Positions 33,075 through 39,492 of a stretch of 39,852 bases of DNA are shown piece after piece (position 1 is the stretch's first letter; every line of letters starts with the position of its first letter). The stretch lies in the NCBI RefSeq assembly GCF_018205345.1, contig NZ_JADRHM010000016.1, positions 1 to 39,852 of the forward strand, in the 5' to 3' direction. The stretch comes from Fusobacterium sp. DD2. GTDB lineage: Bacteria > Fusobacteriota > Fusobacteriia > Fusobacteriales > Fusobacteriaceae. A program made the position numbers and the translations under genes. The notes below the pieces were generated by a model. It ran no database searches. It saw only the letters and a list, made by a program, of their open reading frames with translations, and was not told the origin of the DNA.

Positions 33075-34310
33075 TTAAAAAGAAAATCTGTAACCAACTG
33101 CAAATTGGACAAGATTATTGTTATACTTAGATTTGCTTCCATCTGACCATTTTATTTTTGCATCTCTATGTACATATGCCAGCTCAGTTACAAAGTTATA
33201 ATACTCTAAACCAACACCAGCTGAATAATAGATACCATTTTTTACCTTTGGTTTTATATATTCTGTAATAAGAACTCTATTTTTACCATCCATTGTAATT
33301 GTATCAGAATATGAAGCATGTCCTCTGGTTCTATTAAATGAGTATCCTAAATCAACTTTCACATAAGGTTTTATCTCTGAATCAGTGTTAAAATTATATT
33401 TTCCAGTTACATATAGAGGGAAAGAGTCATATCTAGGTATTTCTGCTTTTATGGTTCTTCTGACAATTTTCTTGTTCTCCATTTGTAATTTATTTAAAAT
33501 CTCTTTTTTCTCAGCTATTAAGTTCTCTTTTTCTTTTAATAGCTTCTCTAATTCTGCTTTATTAACCTCAGTTACTTCAGATACTGGTTGAGCATAAACA
33601 TATTTCTCTATCAGATCTTTCATTTCAGGAGCGAGAGGGTCATACTTTATTACTCCATCGTCTTCTATTTCTTCAAGTTCATCTATATATTTTTCTAAAT
33701 TTTTTGCTAAATCAGTTGAATTTTTACTTGGCTTTACCACCTCTTCAAGAATTCCATCAACAACGTCATCAATTTCCTCTCTAACATCTTTCTCTGGTTG
33801 ACTATCTGGATCTTTAGCATTTTCAGCTAAAGAAAATTTAAGCATCTCATCCTTTAATTCATTTCTTACATCTTCTACTGTTTTTATTATCCTAGTGGTT
33901 TTGCTATTAAGGATTCTTGTATAATCTTTATCAATTCCTGCTATTTTACTATCAAGAGCAGAGATTTCAGACTCAATCTCTTCATTACTTTCCAGCTTAT
34001 TAACATCTACCTTTTGAATATCACTGCTTTTAGTCAAATAAGTAAATTCTTTTTCCAAAGTAGCTGTTCCTCTACTTCTTATATATCCTATTCCCACACC
34101 AAGTTCAACCTTTTCAGATAATGATCTTGTCAGTTCCAGATTAACTGAATTTCCCACTTTACCTTTTGCCTTAAATTTTCCAACATCTTCAACGTTAACT
34201 CTTGAAAATCTTGAATCAAGACTTACTCCTGCTTTCACATACATATTGTTATTGCTTCCCAGTGCAACAACAGATCCCAGTGTAAGCATTCCTAATAAAA
34301 TCTTTTTCAT
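33075..34310 (-). CDS. outer-membrane beta-barrel protein with coiled-coil insert
   Basis: The ATG at 34310 follows GGGAGGAATCGAT; the open frame extends 20 codons further with no ribosome site. The ~411-aa product has a signal peptide (MKKILLGMLTLGSVVALG). The first ~90 residues contain strand-like stretches (MYVKAGVSLDSRF, then SVNLELTRSLSEKVELGVGIGYIRS). Residues about 100-295 are charged helix with heptads (KAELEKLLKEKENLIAEKKE). The last ~115 residues return to alternating strands and end VQFAVGYRFSF, whose terminal Phe is the usual barrel-insertion signal. The shape suggests a barrel carrying a long surface stalk, possibly an adhesin. No named family is recognised. Confidence 0.8.
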   Translation of the reverse strand: MKKILLGMLTLGSVVALGSNNNMYVKAGVSLDSRFSRVNVEDVGKFKAKGKVGNSVNLELTRSLSEKVELGVGIGYIRSRGTATLEKEFTYLTKSSDIQKVDVNKLESNEEIESEISALDSKIAGIDKDYTRILNSKTTRIIKTVEDVRNELKDEMLKFSLAENAKDPDSQPEKDVREEIDDVVDGILEEVVKPSKNSTDLAKNLEKYIDELEEIEDDGVIKYDPLAPEMKDLIEKYVYAQPVSEVTEVNKAELEKLLKEKENLIAEKKEILNKLQMENKKIVRRTIKAEIPRYDSFPLYVTGKYNFNTDSEIKPYVKVDLGYSFNRTRGHASYSDTITMDGKNRVLITEYIKPKVKNGIYYSAGVGLEYYNFVTELAYVHRDAKIKWSDGSKSKYNNNLVQFAVGYRFSF

Positions 34311-34417
34311 ATCGATTCCTCCCAAAATCACAGTTTTACATAGTATTATCAACTTAAAACCATCAACCATATCTGCTATTTTATATTATTGCTGGTATTG
34401 CAAGCTTTAACTCAATA

Positions 34418-34472
34418 GGCAAGAAGTCGCCCACCTCTATAGGTAGTGCGATGAATTGCCTTTTTATTTTTT
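34418..34472 (+). other. left-end structured region of the TnpB element
   Basis: Nested hairpin: GGCAA (34418-34422) with TTGCC (34456-34460), TCGC (34427-34430) with GCGA (34448-34451), ACCT (34433-34436) with AGGT (34441-34444). A T-rich tract follows, so it may also stop transcription arriving from outside. TATAAT at 34482-34487 is the likely -10 of tnpB. Confidence 0.6.
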
Positions 34473-34530
34473 AAAATATGATATAATGTAAGTAGTTTAT
34501 AAAATAAATAATTTTGTAGGAGGTGGACTG

Positions 34531-35670
34531 ATGAAACAACTAAAAGCATATAAATTTAGAATTTATCCAAGCCATGAACAAAAGATATTTTTCAGTAAAA
34601 CTTTTGGTTGTGTTCGTCTTGTCTATAATCTTATGCTAAATGATAGAATTAAAGCATATGAAGAAAGCAAAGGTAATCCTGATAAAAAATTAAAATATAC
34701 TACTCCTGCTAAGTATAAAAAAGAATATGAATTTCTAAAAGAAGTTGATAGTCTTGCTCTTGCTAATGCTCAAATGAATTTAGATAAAGCATATAGAAAC
34801 TTTTTTAGAGATAAGTCAATTGGTTTTCCTAAATTCAAATCCAAGAAAAATCCTGTACAAAGCTATACAACTAATAATCAAAATGGAACTGTAAATATTT
34901 TTGAAAATAGGTTAAAACTTCCAAAATTGAAAGAATTAATAAAAGTAAAAGTGCATAGAGAAATAAAAGGCAAAGTAAAATCTGCTACCATTTCGCGTAA
35001 TGGAAGTGGTAAGTATTTTATCTCTCTTTTGTGTGAAACAGATATAGAAGAACTACCTAAAACTAATTCAGCAGTAGGAATTGACTTAGGTATTAAAGAT
35101 ATGGCTATTTTATCTACTGGAGAGAAAATAAAAAATCTTAAATTTAGAAAGCAACTAGAAGATAAATTAAGAAAAGAACAGAGAAAACTTTCAAGAAGAG
35201 CTTTATTAGCCAAAAAAGAAAATAGAAAATTAAGCGAAGCAAAGAACTATCAAAAGCAAAGAATTAAAGTAGCAAAGATACATGAAAAAATTATGAATAT
35301 GAGAATAGATTTCTTAAATAAGTTAAGTACATATATTATCAAAAACCACGATATTATTTGTATTGAAGACTTAAATACAAAAGGATTACTTCATAATCAT
35401 AAATTAGCTAAATCTATCGTTGATGTATCTTGGGCTAGTTTTGTAAATAAACTTGAGTATAAGGCTAAATGGTATGGTAGAGAGATAATAAAAATCGATA
35501 GACTATATCCATCAAGCCAGATATGCTCTGTTTGTGGGCATCATGATGGCAAGAAAACTCTTGATATAAGAGAGTGGACTTGTCCAATTTGTCATACTCA
35601 TCACGATAGAGATATAAATGCAAGCAAAAATATATTAGCTGAAGGTCTAAGAATAAGACAGGCAGTCTAA
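34531..35670 (+). CDS. tnpB: TnpB RNA-guided endonuclease (OrfB, IS605 family)
   Basis: The 379-aa protein belongs to the TnpB family, ancestors of Cas12, which cut DNA matching the guide on the element's own RNA. The N-terminal helix-turn region is KAYKFRIYPSHEQKIFF. The split RuvC triad is intact: Asp185 in GIDLG, Glu279 in IEDLN and Asp361 in RDINASKN. The zinc finger cysteines are C332/C335 (CSVCG) and C351/C354 (CPICH). GGAGGTGGACTG precedes the ATG. No frameshift or stop is seen, so it may be active. Confidence 0.93.
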   Translation: MKQLKAYKFRIYPSHEQKIFFSKTFGCVRLVYNLMLNDRIKAYEESKGNPDKKLKYTTPAKYKKEYEFLKEVDSLALANAQMNLDKAYRNFFRDKSIGFPKFKSKKNPVQSYTTNNQNGTVNIFENRLKLPKLKELIKVKVHREIKGKVKSATISRNGSGKYFISLLCETDIEELPKTNSAVGIDLGIKDMAILSTGEKIKNLKFRKQLEDKLRKEQRKLSRRALLAKKENRKLSEAKNYQKQRIKVAKIHEKIMNMRIDFLNKLSTYIIKNHDIICIEDLNTKGLLHNHKLAKSIVDVSWASFVNKLEYKAKWYGREIIKIDRLYPSSQICSVCGHHDGKKTLDIREWTCPICHTHHDRDINASKNILAEGLRIRQAV

Positions 35671-35795
35671 AAATAAAAAGAACCGTAGGAACTACGGGGA
35701 TAGCTTGGTAAATATAGTTGGCTAACAAAAGCAACTACTTCCCAAGAAGAAGCTACCACTTCAAAAGCTGAAAGCTTTAAGTGGGAGAGGTTCAC
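35671..35795 (+). ncRNA. probable omega-RNA (reRNA) scaffold
   Basis: After the tnpB stop there are consecutive helices: CCGTAG/CTACGG (35683-35697), CTTGG/CCAAG (35704-35746) enclosing AGTTG/CAACT, and CCACTT with AAGTGG plus AAAGCT/AGCTTT just before the right end. The scaffold ends in GAGAGGTTCAC, and the guide would start at 35796. The RNA probably begins within the 3' part of tnpB; that boundary is not visible. Confidence 0.65.
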
Positions 35796-35815
35796 TGGAT
35801 TGGATAATGTTCGAA
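35796..35815 (+). other. candidate TnpB guide segment
   Basis: TGGATTGGATAATGTTCGAA directly follows the right end and should match the DNA 3' of the TAM at the pre-insertion site. It is flanking chromosomal sequence, not part of the element. Confidence 0.5.
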
Positions 35816-36006: not shown

Positions 36007-36040
36007 ATAGTATAAATTAAAAAATTAGCGAGTGATGACA

Positions 36041-37444
36041 ATGAAATTTAGAAAAGTAAAAACAGAGATAGAGGGAGTATATATAATTGAGCCTACTCTT
36101 TTTGGTGATGAGAGGGGATTTTTCATGGAGACTTGGAACCATGAGGAGTTTAAAAAGATAGGTTTAGATGTGAATTTTGTACAGGATAACCATTCAAAAT
36201 CTATAAGAGGGGTGTTACGTGGACTGCACCTTCAGACAAAACACTCTCAGGGAAAACTGATAAGAGTGGTAAAGGGAGCTATATATGATGTAGCAGTAGA
36301 CCTTCGTGAGGGAAGTGAAACCTATGGTAAATGGATAGGGGTAGAACTGTCTCGTGACAATCACAGAATGTGCTATATTCCAGAGGGATTTGCCCATGGA
36401 TTTTTAGCTCTTGATGATGAAAATGAGATTATCTATAAGTGTACAGATGTGTATAAGCCTCAGTATGAGCTTGGAATTGCCTGGGATGACAGGGACCTTG
36501 GTGTAGACTGGGCACTTGATAGATACAGAATAGATAGAGATTTACTTATACTTTCAGAAAAAGATAGAAAGAATATCTCATTTAATGAGTATCAGCATGG
36601 GTATTTTGGAGAAAAGGTGATGATACTTGGAGCTCATGGACAGTTAGGAAGAGAGTTTCAGAGATATTTTGATGAGAAGAAGATAAGATATGTGGCTTTT
36701 GGGCATAATGATTTGGATGTAAGAGATATCCATAGAATAGAAGAGGAAGCTATTAAAAACAGGGTCACAGGAATTATTAACTGTGCTGGATACAATAATG
36801 TTGATAAGGCTGAAGTAGAAAGAGATGTATGCTGTGAAGTAAATGGCTATGCACCTTTAGGAATAGCAGGAATATGTAAAAAATTGGGAATATTTTTTGT
36901 AACATATTCAACAGACTATGTATTTGATGGAGAAAAAGATACTCCATACACTGAGGATGATATTCCTAATCCAGTATCACTATATGGTCAGTCAAAACTT
37001 ATGGGAGAGCATGCCCTTGAATACAATAGAACTTTGGTGATAAGACCATCATGGATATTTGGAGCTCTAAATGATAACTTTGTTAAAAAGGTAATAGGCT
37101 GGGCAGAGGAAAAACATGAAGTAAGAGTAGTAGATGACCAGGTATCAGCTCCTACATATACAAAAGATCTGGTAAACTTTACATGGAGTATGATAGAAAA
37201 GGATATCTATGGACTTTATCATTTTTCTAATTTTGGAGAGTGCTCTAAGTATGACCAGGTGAAGTATGTGCTGGGTAAAACTGGTGGCCTTGATAAACTT
37301 GAACGTGCTAAATCAGAGGATTTTAAACCACTTGCTAAAAGACCTAAATACTCAAAACTTGACAGCAGAAAAGCTGAAAGTGTAGTAGGGCCAATTTCTC
37401 ACTGGAAAGATGGAATAGATAGATTTTTGAAAGAAATAAAATAG
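36041..37444 (+). CDS. fused dTDP-4-dehydrorhamnose 3,5-epimerase / reductase
   Basis: The ~467-aa protein joins the last two steps of dTDP-L-rhamnose synthesis. Residues 1-185 are RfbC-like: VYIIEPTLFGDERGFFMET, then GVLRGLHLQ with the catalytic His and the ligand loop VVKGAIYDVAVDLR. From about 193 it is RfbD-like: MILGAHGQLGRE (NAD(P)-binding), CAGYNNVDKAE, YSTDYVFDGEKDTPY, YGQSKLMGEH (Tyr-x3-Lys) and RPSWIFG. The natural substrate might be another deoxysugar. rfbA and rfbB are absent from the window. ATG 36041 matches the family N-terminus, but its ribosome site is weak (GAGTGA); 36035 is an alternative. Confidence 0.9.
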   Translation: MKFRKVKTEIEGVYIIEPTLFGDERGFFMETWNHEEFKKIGLDVNFVQDNHSKSIRGVLRGLHLQTKHSQGKLIRVVKGAIYDVAVDLREGSETYGKWIGVELSRDNHRMCYIPEGFAHGFLALDDENEIIYKCTDVYKPQYELGIAWDDRDLGVDWALDRYRIDRDLLILSEKDRKNISFNEYQHGYFGEKVMILGAHGQLGREFQRYFDEKKIRYVAFGHNDLDVRDIHRIEEEAIKNRVTGIINCAGYNNVDKAEVERDVCCEVNGYAPLGIAGICKKLGIFFVTYSTDYVFDGEKDTPYTEDDIPNPVSLYGQSKLMGEHALEYNRTLVIRPSWIFGALNDNFVKKVIGWAEEKHEVRVVDDQVSAPTYTKDLVNFTWSMIEKDIYGLYHFSNFGECSKYDQVKYVLGKTGGLDKLERAKSEDFKPLAKRPKYSKLDSRKAESVVGPISHWKDGIDRFLKEIK

Positions 37445-37572: not shown

Positions 37573-39492
37573 ATGACGATAAAATATCATGAAAATAGCA
37601 GAGAATTACAACGTGCTTATTTACAAGATGTTCAAGAGATGCTAAGTAATTTTACTCCTTTACTAGAATATGATAATTTAAATAAAGTTTTAGAACTTGA
37701 AAATATTAGTTTATTTCTTGATAATGACACTTATCATGAAATTTGGGTAGATAAAGGTATAGAGGATTACCAGTTAAAAAATCAGCAGATAAAAAAAATT
37801 ATTAATAAGTTCTTTAATAAGATAGATAATGATAATATATATGAGATAGTGTCGGATATAGATGCTATTTACATAGATAATTTTTGGTATTTATTTAATT
37901 CAAATAAGTTATGTGAAAAGGTTTCTAATCAAAATTTTAAAAAGATATTGAAACTTGAAAAGATACATTTGAGAGAAATCCTAAAATATAAAGATGTTAT
38001 CATGCAATATAAAACTACTATAAAAGATTATATTTTTAGCAATCAAGATGCATTTGAAGTCATAATGGATATAGAATTTAATGAGGATAAAAAAAATAGT
38101 TTTAAAGTATCTTTGCTAGAATTAATAGAAGAAGAGATAACTGAATTAATTCATAATTATATAACAGAAGATTTTAACAAAATAAAGTATATTGAGAAGA
38201 TTATTCATACCCCAAAGATTCTGAACAAAGAAATCAGTATTCCTGAAAAAATAAGAGCTAAGGAAATATATGACAAGCTTGTTGATAAATGCTTACAGAA
38301 AGGGCGTTCAATTGGTTATGAAATAACATATAATGAGAATCAACAAGAGGAAGTAGTTTGTAAAACCGAAGAAGATGGAAATGAGCTATTGTACAAAATA
38401 TACTATAGTTTGGACTGGTTAGAAAAATATCTTGATTATCCGACTATTTTAAATAATTTTATTCATATTTTTGAATTTGTTGATTTTCAATGTAGAATTT
38501 CCAGTGTAAGTAGGGAACATGAGGTAGGAGTTTTTGAAAAATGTTTATTGCCTCAAGGAAAGAACCATTATACTAATGGAGTAGCTTTTCAACAAAAAAA
38601 TTTGAAAATTGAAATTGATTTAATGACGTATTATGAGTTTCTAAAAAGTAAAGGGATAAGGCTAGAAGAAGTATTAGAGTGGTTTTTTATGGAGTACTTA
38701 AACGATGAATTTAATATACAAGGTTTTACTCTTAGTTTACCATCAGAAGGTTTAAGCTATCTTGAAAAGTGTAAATGCATTATGGCTGAAATTGAAAGTG
38801 TGTTAAAGCAATTTGATTTATTTTGTAAGTATAAACAGATTAGTCGTGAAATGTTAGCCTATGTATCTACTCAACTTAAGTTTGAAAATGTAAAAAGTTT
38901 AATACCTGATAAGTATATTTACATTGACGAGACTAATCCGAAAATTGTAAATATATTAACATTATTATTTTCTAATCAATCGCTATTAAGTTATGTAAAT
39001 GGAATTGAAGATCAATATGACAGTTTTTATAAATTAATAGTGAAAGAAAAAGTATCAAAACAGATTTTTGAAGAATATCAAGTACCATCTATTGATTTTT
39101 TATTGCAGAATGAAATTTTATATGAAACTGATGAGGGGATTCTTAAATTCAAAAACTATAAAATGATATTTATTTTACGTGAATTATATATGATGGATGC
39201 AGTATGTAGTAGTTATAGACTAAAATTTAAAAAAGAGTTAGATTTATTAAAAAATAATAAAATGATTAAAGAAGAAAGTACATTGTTAGCTAAGAATGAA
39301 GCTAAATATTTAAACTATGTATTAAATGCGAGGCTAGCCAATGGAATGCAATTGAGAAATATTTATGGGCATGGAACAAATACTTTGGATGAAAAAAGGA
39401 ATAAAGAGATTTATTTTAAATTTTTAGAAGTTTTAATTTATTTGGTAATTAAAATAAATGAAGAATTTTGTTTGGTAAATCCAGAGAGATAA
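37573..39492 (+). CDS. large protein with C-terminal HEPN-like RX4H motif
   Basis: The 639-aa protein is rich in Lys, Asn, Ile, Glu and Asp and more AT-rich in codon choice than its housekeeping neighbours, suggesting acquisition. I do not recognise the N-terminal 300 residues, which appear helical. A middle region (about 310-370) reads EKCLLPQGKNHYTNG. The C-terminal ~100 residues are helical and contain LRNIYGHG (Arg595, His600), an RX4H motif as in HEPN RNases and as at the end of DUF4209-like proteins. No signal peptide or membrane segment. GGAGGATGATTA precedes the ATG. Defence or toxin function is possible but unproven. Confidence 0.7.
   Translation: MTIKYHENSRELQRAYLQDVQEMLSNFTPLLEYDNLNKVLELENISLFLDNDTYHEIWVDKGIEDYQLKNQQIKKIINKFFNKIDNDNIYEIVSDIDAIYIDNFWYLFNSNKLCEKVSNQNFKKILKLEKIHLREILKYKDVIMQYKTTIKDYIFSNQDAFEVIMDIEFNEDKKNSFKVSLLELIEEEITELIHNYITEDFNKIKYIEKIIHTPKILNKEISIPEKIRAKEIYDKLVDKCLQKGRSIGYEITYNENQQEEVVCKTEEDGNELLYKIYYSLDWLEKYLDYPTILNNFIHIFEFVDFQCRISSVSREHEVGVFEKCLLPQGKNHYTNGVAFQQKNLKIEIDLMTYYEFLKSKGIRLEEVLEWFFMEYLNDEFNIQGFTLSLPSEGLSYLEKCKCIMAEIESVLKQFDLFCKYKQISREMLAYVSTQLKFENVKSLIPDKYIYIDETNPKIVNILTLLFSNQSLLSYVNGIEDQYDSFYKLIVKEKVSKQIFEEYQVPSIDFLLQNEILYETDEGILKFKNYKMIFILRELYMMDAVCSSYRLKFKKELDLLKNNKMIKEESTLLAKNEAKYLNYVLNARLANGMQLRNIYGHGTNTLDEKRNKEIYFKFLEVLIYLVIKINEEFCLVNPER

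What the first reader, a model, noticed from the sequence alone, without database searches (positions are those of the whole stretch)
34406..35815. Transposase-free TnpB element with intact RuvC site, omega-RNA and readable guide
tnpB is complete and the right-end structure matches known reRNA 3' ends, so both the guide (35796-35815) and the TAM candidate (TTTAA, 34406-34410) can be read directly from the chromosome. With no tnpA, its upkeep depends on a helper or on a host role such as a domesticated nuclease or regulator.
Basis: partly seen in the sequence, partly recalled or inferred. Interest (0 to 1): 0.55.

Follow-up and report, generated by a model that had tools for sequence, protein, structure and literature searches.

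The report
Transposase-less TnpB jumping-gene remnant
A small mobile DNA element has lost the enzyme that moves it but kept an apparently working RNA-guided DNA cutter aimed at its own insertion site; this is a known kind of element, here read out unusually cleanly.

Summary
Positions 34406-35795 hold an IS200/IS605-type element: TAM TTTAA (34406-34410), left end, intact tnpB (34531-35670; RuvC D185/E279/D361 and zinc ribbon present), a conserved reRNA scaffold ending GTTCAC, then a guide from 35796. Both ends were fixed independently by unrelated insertions in relatives. A second copy in the same genome sits in a PTS gene, where homologous uninterrupted genes show the join TTTAA|guide. The reRNA hairpin is present in 66 of 69 loci, with two-sided base changes. 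No Y1 transposase was found in the whole genome. tnpA sits between this left end and tnpB in relatives and was deleted repeatedly, while tnpB stays under purifying selection (window-C28 dN/dS 0.08). The guide has no other TAM-flanked target in the genome, so a host regulatory role is unsupported. Best reading: a tnpA-deleted IS605 derivative whose TnpB-reRNA retains the element at its own site by cutting empty alleles (inferred). It is a new member of a known kind. No orthologous empty site was found for the window locus itself.

The parts
34406..34410 (+). TAM / target sequence TTTAA on the left flank
   Evidence: 21 of 24 non-duplicate left ends carry TTTAA with unrelated sequence upstream; TTTAA is the experimentally shown TAM of Sulfolobus islandicus TnpB7, whose reRNA also ends UUCAC (PMC11043419 passages)
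34411..34504 (+). left end (LE) with subterminal hairpin, joined directly to the tnpB leader; tnpA is deleted at the right edge of this part
   Evidence: alignment with LE-tnpA-tnpB copies; tnpA present in G009 and L113
34531..35670 (+). tnpB, 379 aa, RNA-guided endonuclease; RuvC D185/E279/D361; zinc ribbon C332/C335/C351/C354
35683..35697 (+). reRNA hairpin 1 (CCGTAG-GAA-CTACGG)
   Evidence: 66 of 69 loci, two-sided changes at 4 of 6 pairs
35704..35746 (+). reRNA stem 2 (CTTGG 35704-35708 with CCAAG 35742-35746) enclosing arm TAGTTG/CAACTA
   Evidence: fold; arms replaced jointly by CCTAA/TTAGG or CCTAG/CTAGG in relatives
35756..35784 (+). terminal (right-end) hairpin CCACTT/AAGTGG; also the presumed TnpA-binding hairpin; one stem mismatch in this copy next to these pairs
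35671..35795 (+). right end (RE) and reRNA scaffold, ending GTTCAC
   Evidence: weak match to Rfam RF02841 Ref70 at 35677-35783 (35.1 bits, gathering 115, E 5e-4)
35796..35811 (+). guide, about 16 nt (up to 35815 if 20 nt), read from the right flank
   Evidence: first base after the conserved GTTCAC; guide length from ISDra2 reRNA, about 16 nt (PMC8612924 passages)
33075..34370 (-). neighbouring outer-membrane-like protein gene; the TAM starts 36 bp upstream of its start codon (context, not part of the element)
   Evidence: PF13505 27.3 bits, just below cut-off 28.7

Best explanation
An IS605-group element that lost tnpA by internal deletion and survives as TAM-LE-tnpB-reRNA-guide. TnpB binds the reRNA transcribed from the 3' end of the element, whose last ~16 nt copy the right flank. 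The occupied site is spared because GTTCAC, not TTTAA, precedes the guide-matching flank. Any chromosome or incoming DNA carrying the empty site TTTAA-TGGATTGGATAATGTT would be cut and repaired from the element-bearing copy. This keeps, and could spread, the element at this site without a transposase. Shown by sequence: ends, TAM, intact active site, conserved reRNA, guide, absence of tnpA, purifying selection on tnpB. Inferred: expression, RNP formation, cutting, and retention as the force that keeps tnpB.
For: Family and active site. Ends and TAM. Join TTTAA|guide at the sister copy: its guide continues a PTS EIICB reading frame as TTT AAT GTT CCA ACT CCT (FNVPTPGRE); 28 of 29 homologous loci (L194-L222) show the motif, 26 of those 28 with FN, 18 of 28 with exact TTTAA. 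reRNA conservation and two-sided changes. Origin by tnpA loss: intact tnpA in the same place in G009 and L113, different partial deletions in G005, G016, G028, G058. Constraint: window-C28 dN/dS 0.078; window-specific changes 14 synonymous and 7 nonsynonymous. Guide unique: no second exact 16-mer and none with 1 mismatch; none of the 7 two-mismatch places that were given a locus has NTTAA upstream (9 two-mismatch places listed, 2 not looked at); no exact NTTAA+8-nt seed. Same TAM, same reRNA end and no self-cutting at TTCAC shown in S. islandicus (PMC11043419 passages); drive by TnpB shown on plasmids (PMC11870625 passages).
Against: No transcript data. No orthologous empty site for the window locus among 60 relatives. 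Two-sided changes in the terminal hairpin could reflect TnpA binding rather than RNA function, so only hairpin 1 and stem 2 count. Both copies in this genome have a mismatch in the RE stem, which fits decay. The tnpB promoter spacing looks shortened against tnpA-bearing copies, and the consensus scan found no more promoter-like sites than expected (7 against 9.9). The constraint may date from before tnpA was lost. The sister copy's left flank is not the PTS gene, so that locus is rearranged or misassembled.
Confidence: 0.65

Rival explanations
1. Stranded relic: the element was moved by its own or a helper TnpA in the past, that transposase is gone, and tnpB is simply not yet decayed.
For: No Y1 transposase in the genome (0 of 1); RE stem mismatches in both copies and a weakened LE stem; only two copies; other copies in relatives are visibly decaying.
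Against: tnpB is open in 7 of 7 near-full-length copies at 86% identity or more found in the 61 genomes (for reading frames), with low dN/dS on window and C28 branches.
Confidence: 0.2
2. Non-autonomous but mobile: still moved in trans by TnpA of co-resident IS605 elements in other strains or after gene transfer.
For: Two insertions at different sites in this genome and one in G004, all without tnpA; a family member with intact tnpA and mostly deleted tnpB exists in G028; LE/RE-only mini-elements in G005; trans mobilisation is proposed for Halanaerobium IS605 ends (PMC7290912 passages).
Against: No Y1 hit in this assembly or in G004. The tnpB tree rejects window+C28+G004 as one clade (p-AU 0.0023) and the deletion joints differ, so movement after tnpA loss is not shown.
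Confidence: 0.1
3. Domesticated host nuclease or RNA-guided regulator of a chromosomal gene.
For: A close relative was turned into a TldR-like protein beside opp1F in E. faecalis (53% identity over 327 aligned positions); the element lies 36 bp from a start codon.
Against: RuvC intact; guide matches only its own flank; locus not conserved in relatives; transposon ends still present.
Confidence: 0.05

Closest known systems
ISEfa4 and related Enterococcus IS200/IS605 elements
   Same: tnpB DNA about 72-73% identical over 86% of the query; same reRNA scaffold GAACCGTAGG...CCCAA and hairpin
   Different: tnpA present; longer internal reRNA arm
Sulfolobus islandicus IS605 TnpB7 (PMC11043419)
   Same: TTTAA TAM, reRNA ends UUCAC, guide starts right after
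   Different: archaeal, experimentally tested; IS605 group with tnpA overlapping tnpB
ISDra2 TnpB (PDB 8bf8/8h1j; PMC8612924)
   Same: aligned over residues 4-373, E 2.1e-79, catalytic residues conserved
   Different: TTGAT TAM; tnpA present
OppF-associated TldR (E. faecalis; name recalled) with sRNA Ref70
   Same: 53% identity over 327 aligned positions; homologous guide-RNA scaffold
   Different: the E. faecalis protein has lost the first RuvC aspartate (GIC instead of GID) and the C-terminal zinc ribbon; the window protein has not
IS1341 group (tnpB-only elements)
   Same: tnpB alone between LE and RE
   Different: here tnpA loss from an IS605-type ancestor is traceable; PMC9956272 left it open whether IS1341 members are decay products (passages)

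Membership tests
IS200/IS605 TnpB nuclease | TnpB domain set above curated cut-off | tested here: met
   PF12323, PF01385, PF07282, NF038281 all above cut-off
IS200/IS605 TnpB nuclease | DED RuvC residues and CxxC...CxxC zinc ribbon | tested here: met
   alignment to ISDra2 TnpB, positions
IS200/IS605 TnpB nuclease | conserved reRNA scaffold at the 3' end, followed directly by flank that serves as guide | tested here: met
   conserved scaffold and end point; the transcript itself could not be tested
IS200/IS605 TnpB nuclease | RNA-guided cleavage next to the TAM | not testable with these tools
   needs biochemistry
IS605 group (tnpA + tnpB) | Y1 transposase tnpA in the element | tested here: not met
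   (0 of 1 genome); present in relatives G009 and L113
IS1341 group (tnpB only) | tnpB alone between LE and RE, no Y1-derived coding sequence | tested here: met
   LE joins the tnpB leader directly; at most a few bases of tnpA leader and tail remain
TldR (nuclease-dead repressor) | inactivated RuvC | tested here: not met
   RuvC intact
TldR (nuclease-dead repressor) | guide matching a host promoter elsewhere | tested here: not met
Cas12f CRISPR effector | adjacent CRISPR array | not tested
   padloc Cas12 models hit the shared domain; no dedicated repeat search was run

The most novel reading that the evidence does not exclude
In this family tnpA is lost again and again while tnpB-reRNA stays intact and constrained. 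The tnpB-only form would then be a stable, transposase-independent homing element that persists by cutting empty alleles during recombination between strains: an RNA-guided gene drive on chromosomes.
Probability: 0.2. Interest if true: 0.55.

Novelty: new member of a known kind. Interest (0 to 1): 0.3.

Why it matters
The ends, TAM, guide and history can all be read from sequence, and 0 of 7 near-full-length tnpB copies in the 61 genomes have an intact neighbouring tnpA. This makes it a good natural case for testing whether TnpB alone keeps a transposon in place. Whether tnpB-only elements are decayed IS605 or an independent group was stated as unclear in PMC9956272 (passages); here the decay route is visible.

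Tried and rejected
Empty site at the window locus: joined flanks searched in 61 genomes (own plus 60 relatives); elsewhere mainly the rmlC part matched, besides short scattered stretches, and the two flanks never matched together. One tnpA loss followed by spread of the tnpA-less form: rejected as one tnpB clade (p-AU 0.0023), although the three left ends share small features, so recombination between copies is possible. Extra guide targets: none with a TAM in the genome. Viral contigs with TTTAA plus the first 14 guide bases: 3, two of which read identically over the stretch printed, and matching stops after those 14 nt; the reversed control gave 1, so I take it as chance. A third TnpB in the genome (weak TNB hit at C39) is part of an anaerobic ribonucleotide reductase. 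MAFFT alignment A1 misaligned the internal arm, so covariation was counted on fixed hairpin geometry in Python. There, 3 of 69 rows (L147, L159, L191) had no hairpin by the rule, and L157 and L175 were parsed with a 4-nt loop, which lowers the observed pairing. A first, looser pattern gave 5395 matches and was dropped. G009 copies with runs of N or cut by a contig end were not counted as broken.

Full report
What is there. The window is contig C16 of a 2.36 Mb, 155-contig genome. tnpB runs 34531-35670 and matches the IS200/IS605 TnpB model well above its cut-off. Aligned to ISDra2 TnpB (PDB 8bf8, E 2.1e-79), the three RuvC residues D185, E279 and D361 and the four zinc-ribbon cysteines are present (positions).

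Ends. Copies fetched from relatives were compared at both ends. Upstream similarity starts at 34406 and downstream similarity stops at 35795, with unrelated flanks beyond. Among 24 non-duplicate left ends (five of them from a more distant element type), 21 carry TTTAA, two carry another NTTAA and one carries TTTTA. Most right ends of the close copies finish GTTCAC; the decayed copies L023, L053 and L054 differ in the last bases. S. islandicus TnpB7 uses TTTAA, tolerates NTTAA, has an reRNA that ends UUCAC, and does not cut its own site next to TTCAC (PMC11043419, passages read).

Empty-site test. The window flanks have no orthologous joined site in 60 relatives. The sister copy in the same genome (C28, 93% identical) does allow a test. 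Its guide strand reads on into a PTS EIIB domain, and in homologous uninterrupted genes the codons before it are mostly Phe-Asn: 28 of 29 loci show the motif, 26 of these 28 have FN, and 18 of 28 have exact TTTAA. The join TTTAA|TGTTCCAACT restores F-N-V-P-T-P-G-R-E. These are homologues (34-60% identical over the domain), not an empty allele of the same strain. The C28 left flank is not EIIC, and no orphan EIIC half was found in the genome, so a deletion, rearrangement or misassembly adjoins that copy.

Guide RNA. The stretch between the tnpB stop and the right end holds a hairpin found in 66 of 69 loci, from the relatives and from named Bacillota contigs. Over 17 distinct arm pairs, 92% of pairs are standard against a shuffled mean of 74% (maximum 81% of 1000), with two-sided changes at 4 of 6 positions. 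A second stem changes jointly (CTTGG/CCAAG, CCTAA/TTAGG, CCTAG/CTAGG; same call, not put to a shuffle test). The terminal hairpin also varies, but it is presumably the TnpA site too and was not counted. Rfam gave nothing here at gathering level. In a permissive search the stretch matches RF02841 Ref70, an Enterococcus sRNA, at 35.1 bits (gathering 115, E 5e-4). A 48-nt piece of the Ref70 consensus, used as a query, lands directly after a TnpB-family gene next to opp1F in an E. faecalis record. That protein is 53% identical to the window TnpB over 327 aligned positions but reads GIC where the first RuvC aspartate should be and lacks the zinc ribbon. It fits the OppF-associated TldR described by Wiegand et al. 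2024 (recalled; paper not held). The window TnpB is therefore a relative of that regulator with an intact active site, not such a regulator itself.

Loss of tnpA. No Y1 transposase model hit occurs in this genome. In G009 and in L113 an intact tnpA reading frame lies between the same left end and tnpB. G005, G016, G028 and G058 keep different fragments of it. The seven near-full-length tnpB copies (86% identity or more) in the 61 genomes are all open, and none has an intact tnpA beside it. G009 is not counted because its tnpB runs off a contig end or holds N. In the tnpB tree, window, C28 and G005 group with 100/100 support, and window+C28+G004 as one clade is rejected (p-AU 0.0023). Several losses are therefore likely, though recombination between copies is not excluded. 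G028 holds the reverse case, an intact tnpA with tnpB mostly gone.

Constraint. Window against C28: dN 0.015, dS 0.198, ratio 0.078. Window-specific changes are 14 synonymous and 7 nonsynonymous (binomial p 2e-4 with transitions weighted 4:1), and C28-specific 22 and 7, polarised with G005 alone. With three outgroups the window-specific count falls to 8 and 6. tnpB was selected for function for much of the time since these copies split; how much of that time was without tnpA cannot be said.

Host role. The guide has no second exact 16-mer and none with one mismatch in the genome. Of the 9 two-mismatch places, the 7 that were given a locus have no NTTAA upstream, and there is no exact NTTAA plus 8-nt seed. 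The locus is not conserved. Regulation or domestication is not supported.

Mechanism. The best-supported account is retention: TnpB with this reRNA cuts DNA that has the site but not the element, and repair copies the element in. Drive by TnpB was shown for IS elements on plasmids (PMC11870625, passages), and genomic retention by Meers et al. 2023 (recalled; not held). Whether it works without TnpA on a chromosome is the open point. Rivals are a stranded relic and trans-mobilisation. Searches of the held literature for TnpB with Fusobacterium (7 papers, listing only) and for ref70 (none) showed nothing on this element or on the Ref70 link.

Verdict. Observation confirmed, interpretation partly supported, a new member of a known kind with a well-documented route of tnpA loss. 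Interest 0.3.

Noticed in passing
L230:2501-2544 (NZ_CP143580.1) and window 35677-35783: Rfam RF02841 Ref70 'Enterococcus sRNA 70' lies directly downstream of a TldR-like, RuvC-dead TnpB gene beside opp1F in E. faecalis, so this Rfam sRNA is probably the guide RNA of the OppF-associated TldR.
   Followed up: partly
L002:1180-2930 (G000:C28): The sister copy is inserted at the EIIC/EIIB linker of a PTS gene, but its left flank is unrelated and no orphan EIIC half was found in the genome: a deletion or rearrangement ends at the element's left edge, or the assembly is chimeric.
   Followed up: partly
window 37573-39492: A 639-aa protein without Pfam or NCBIfam match scores 608.7 bits against the PADLOC candidate-defence model PDC-S56.
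   Followed up: no
window 36032-37444: rmlC and rmlD are fused in one 470-aa reading frame (epimerase domain 10-185, reductase domain 195-469).
   Followed up: no
L036 (G004:C5, near 12860): The G004 copy has lost the terminal right-end hairpin but kept the scaffold and GTTCAC before the flank, while its tnpB stays open.
   Followed up: no
L048 and L049 (G005:C19 40622-40915, C11 18573-18866): Elements of about 294 bp with only left and right ends, i.e. non-autonomous derivatives of a related element.
   Followed up: no
window 34450-34490: The spacing between a -35-like TTG element and TATAAT upstream of tnpB is shorter in window, C28 and G004 than in copies that keep tnpA or part of it, possibly weakening the promoter (read by eye).
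   Followed up: no
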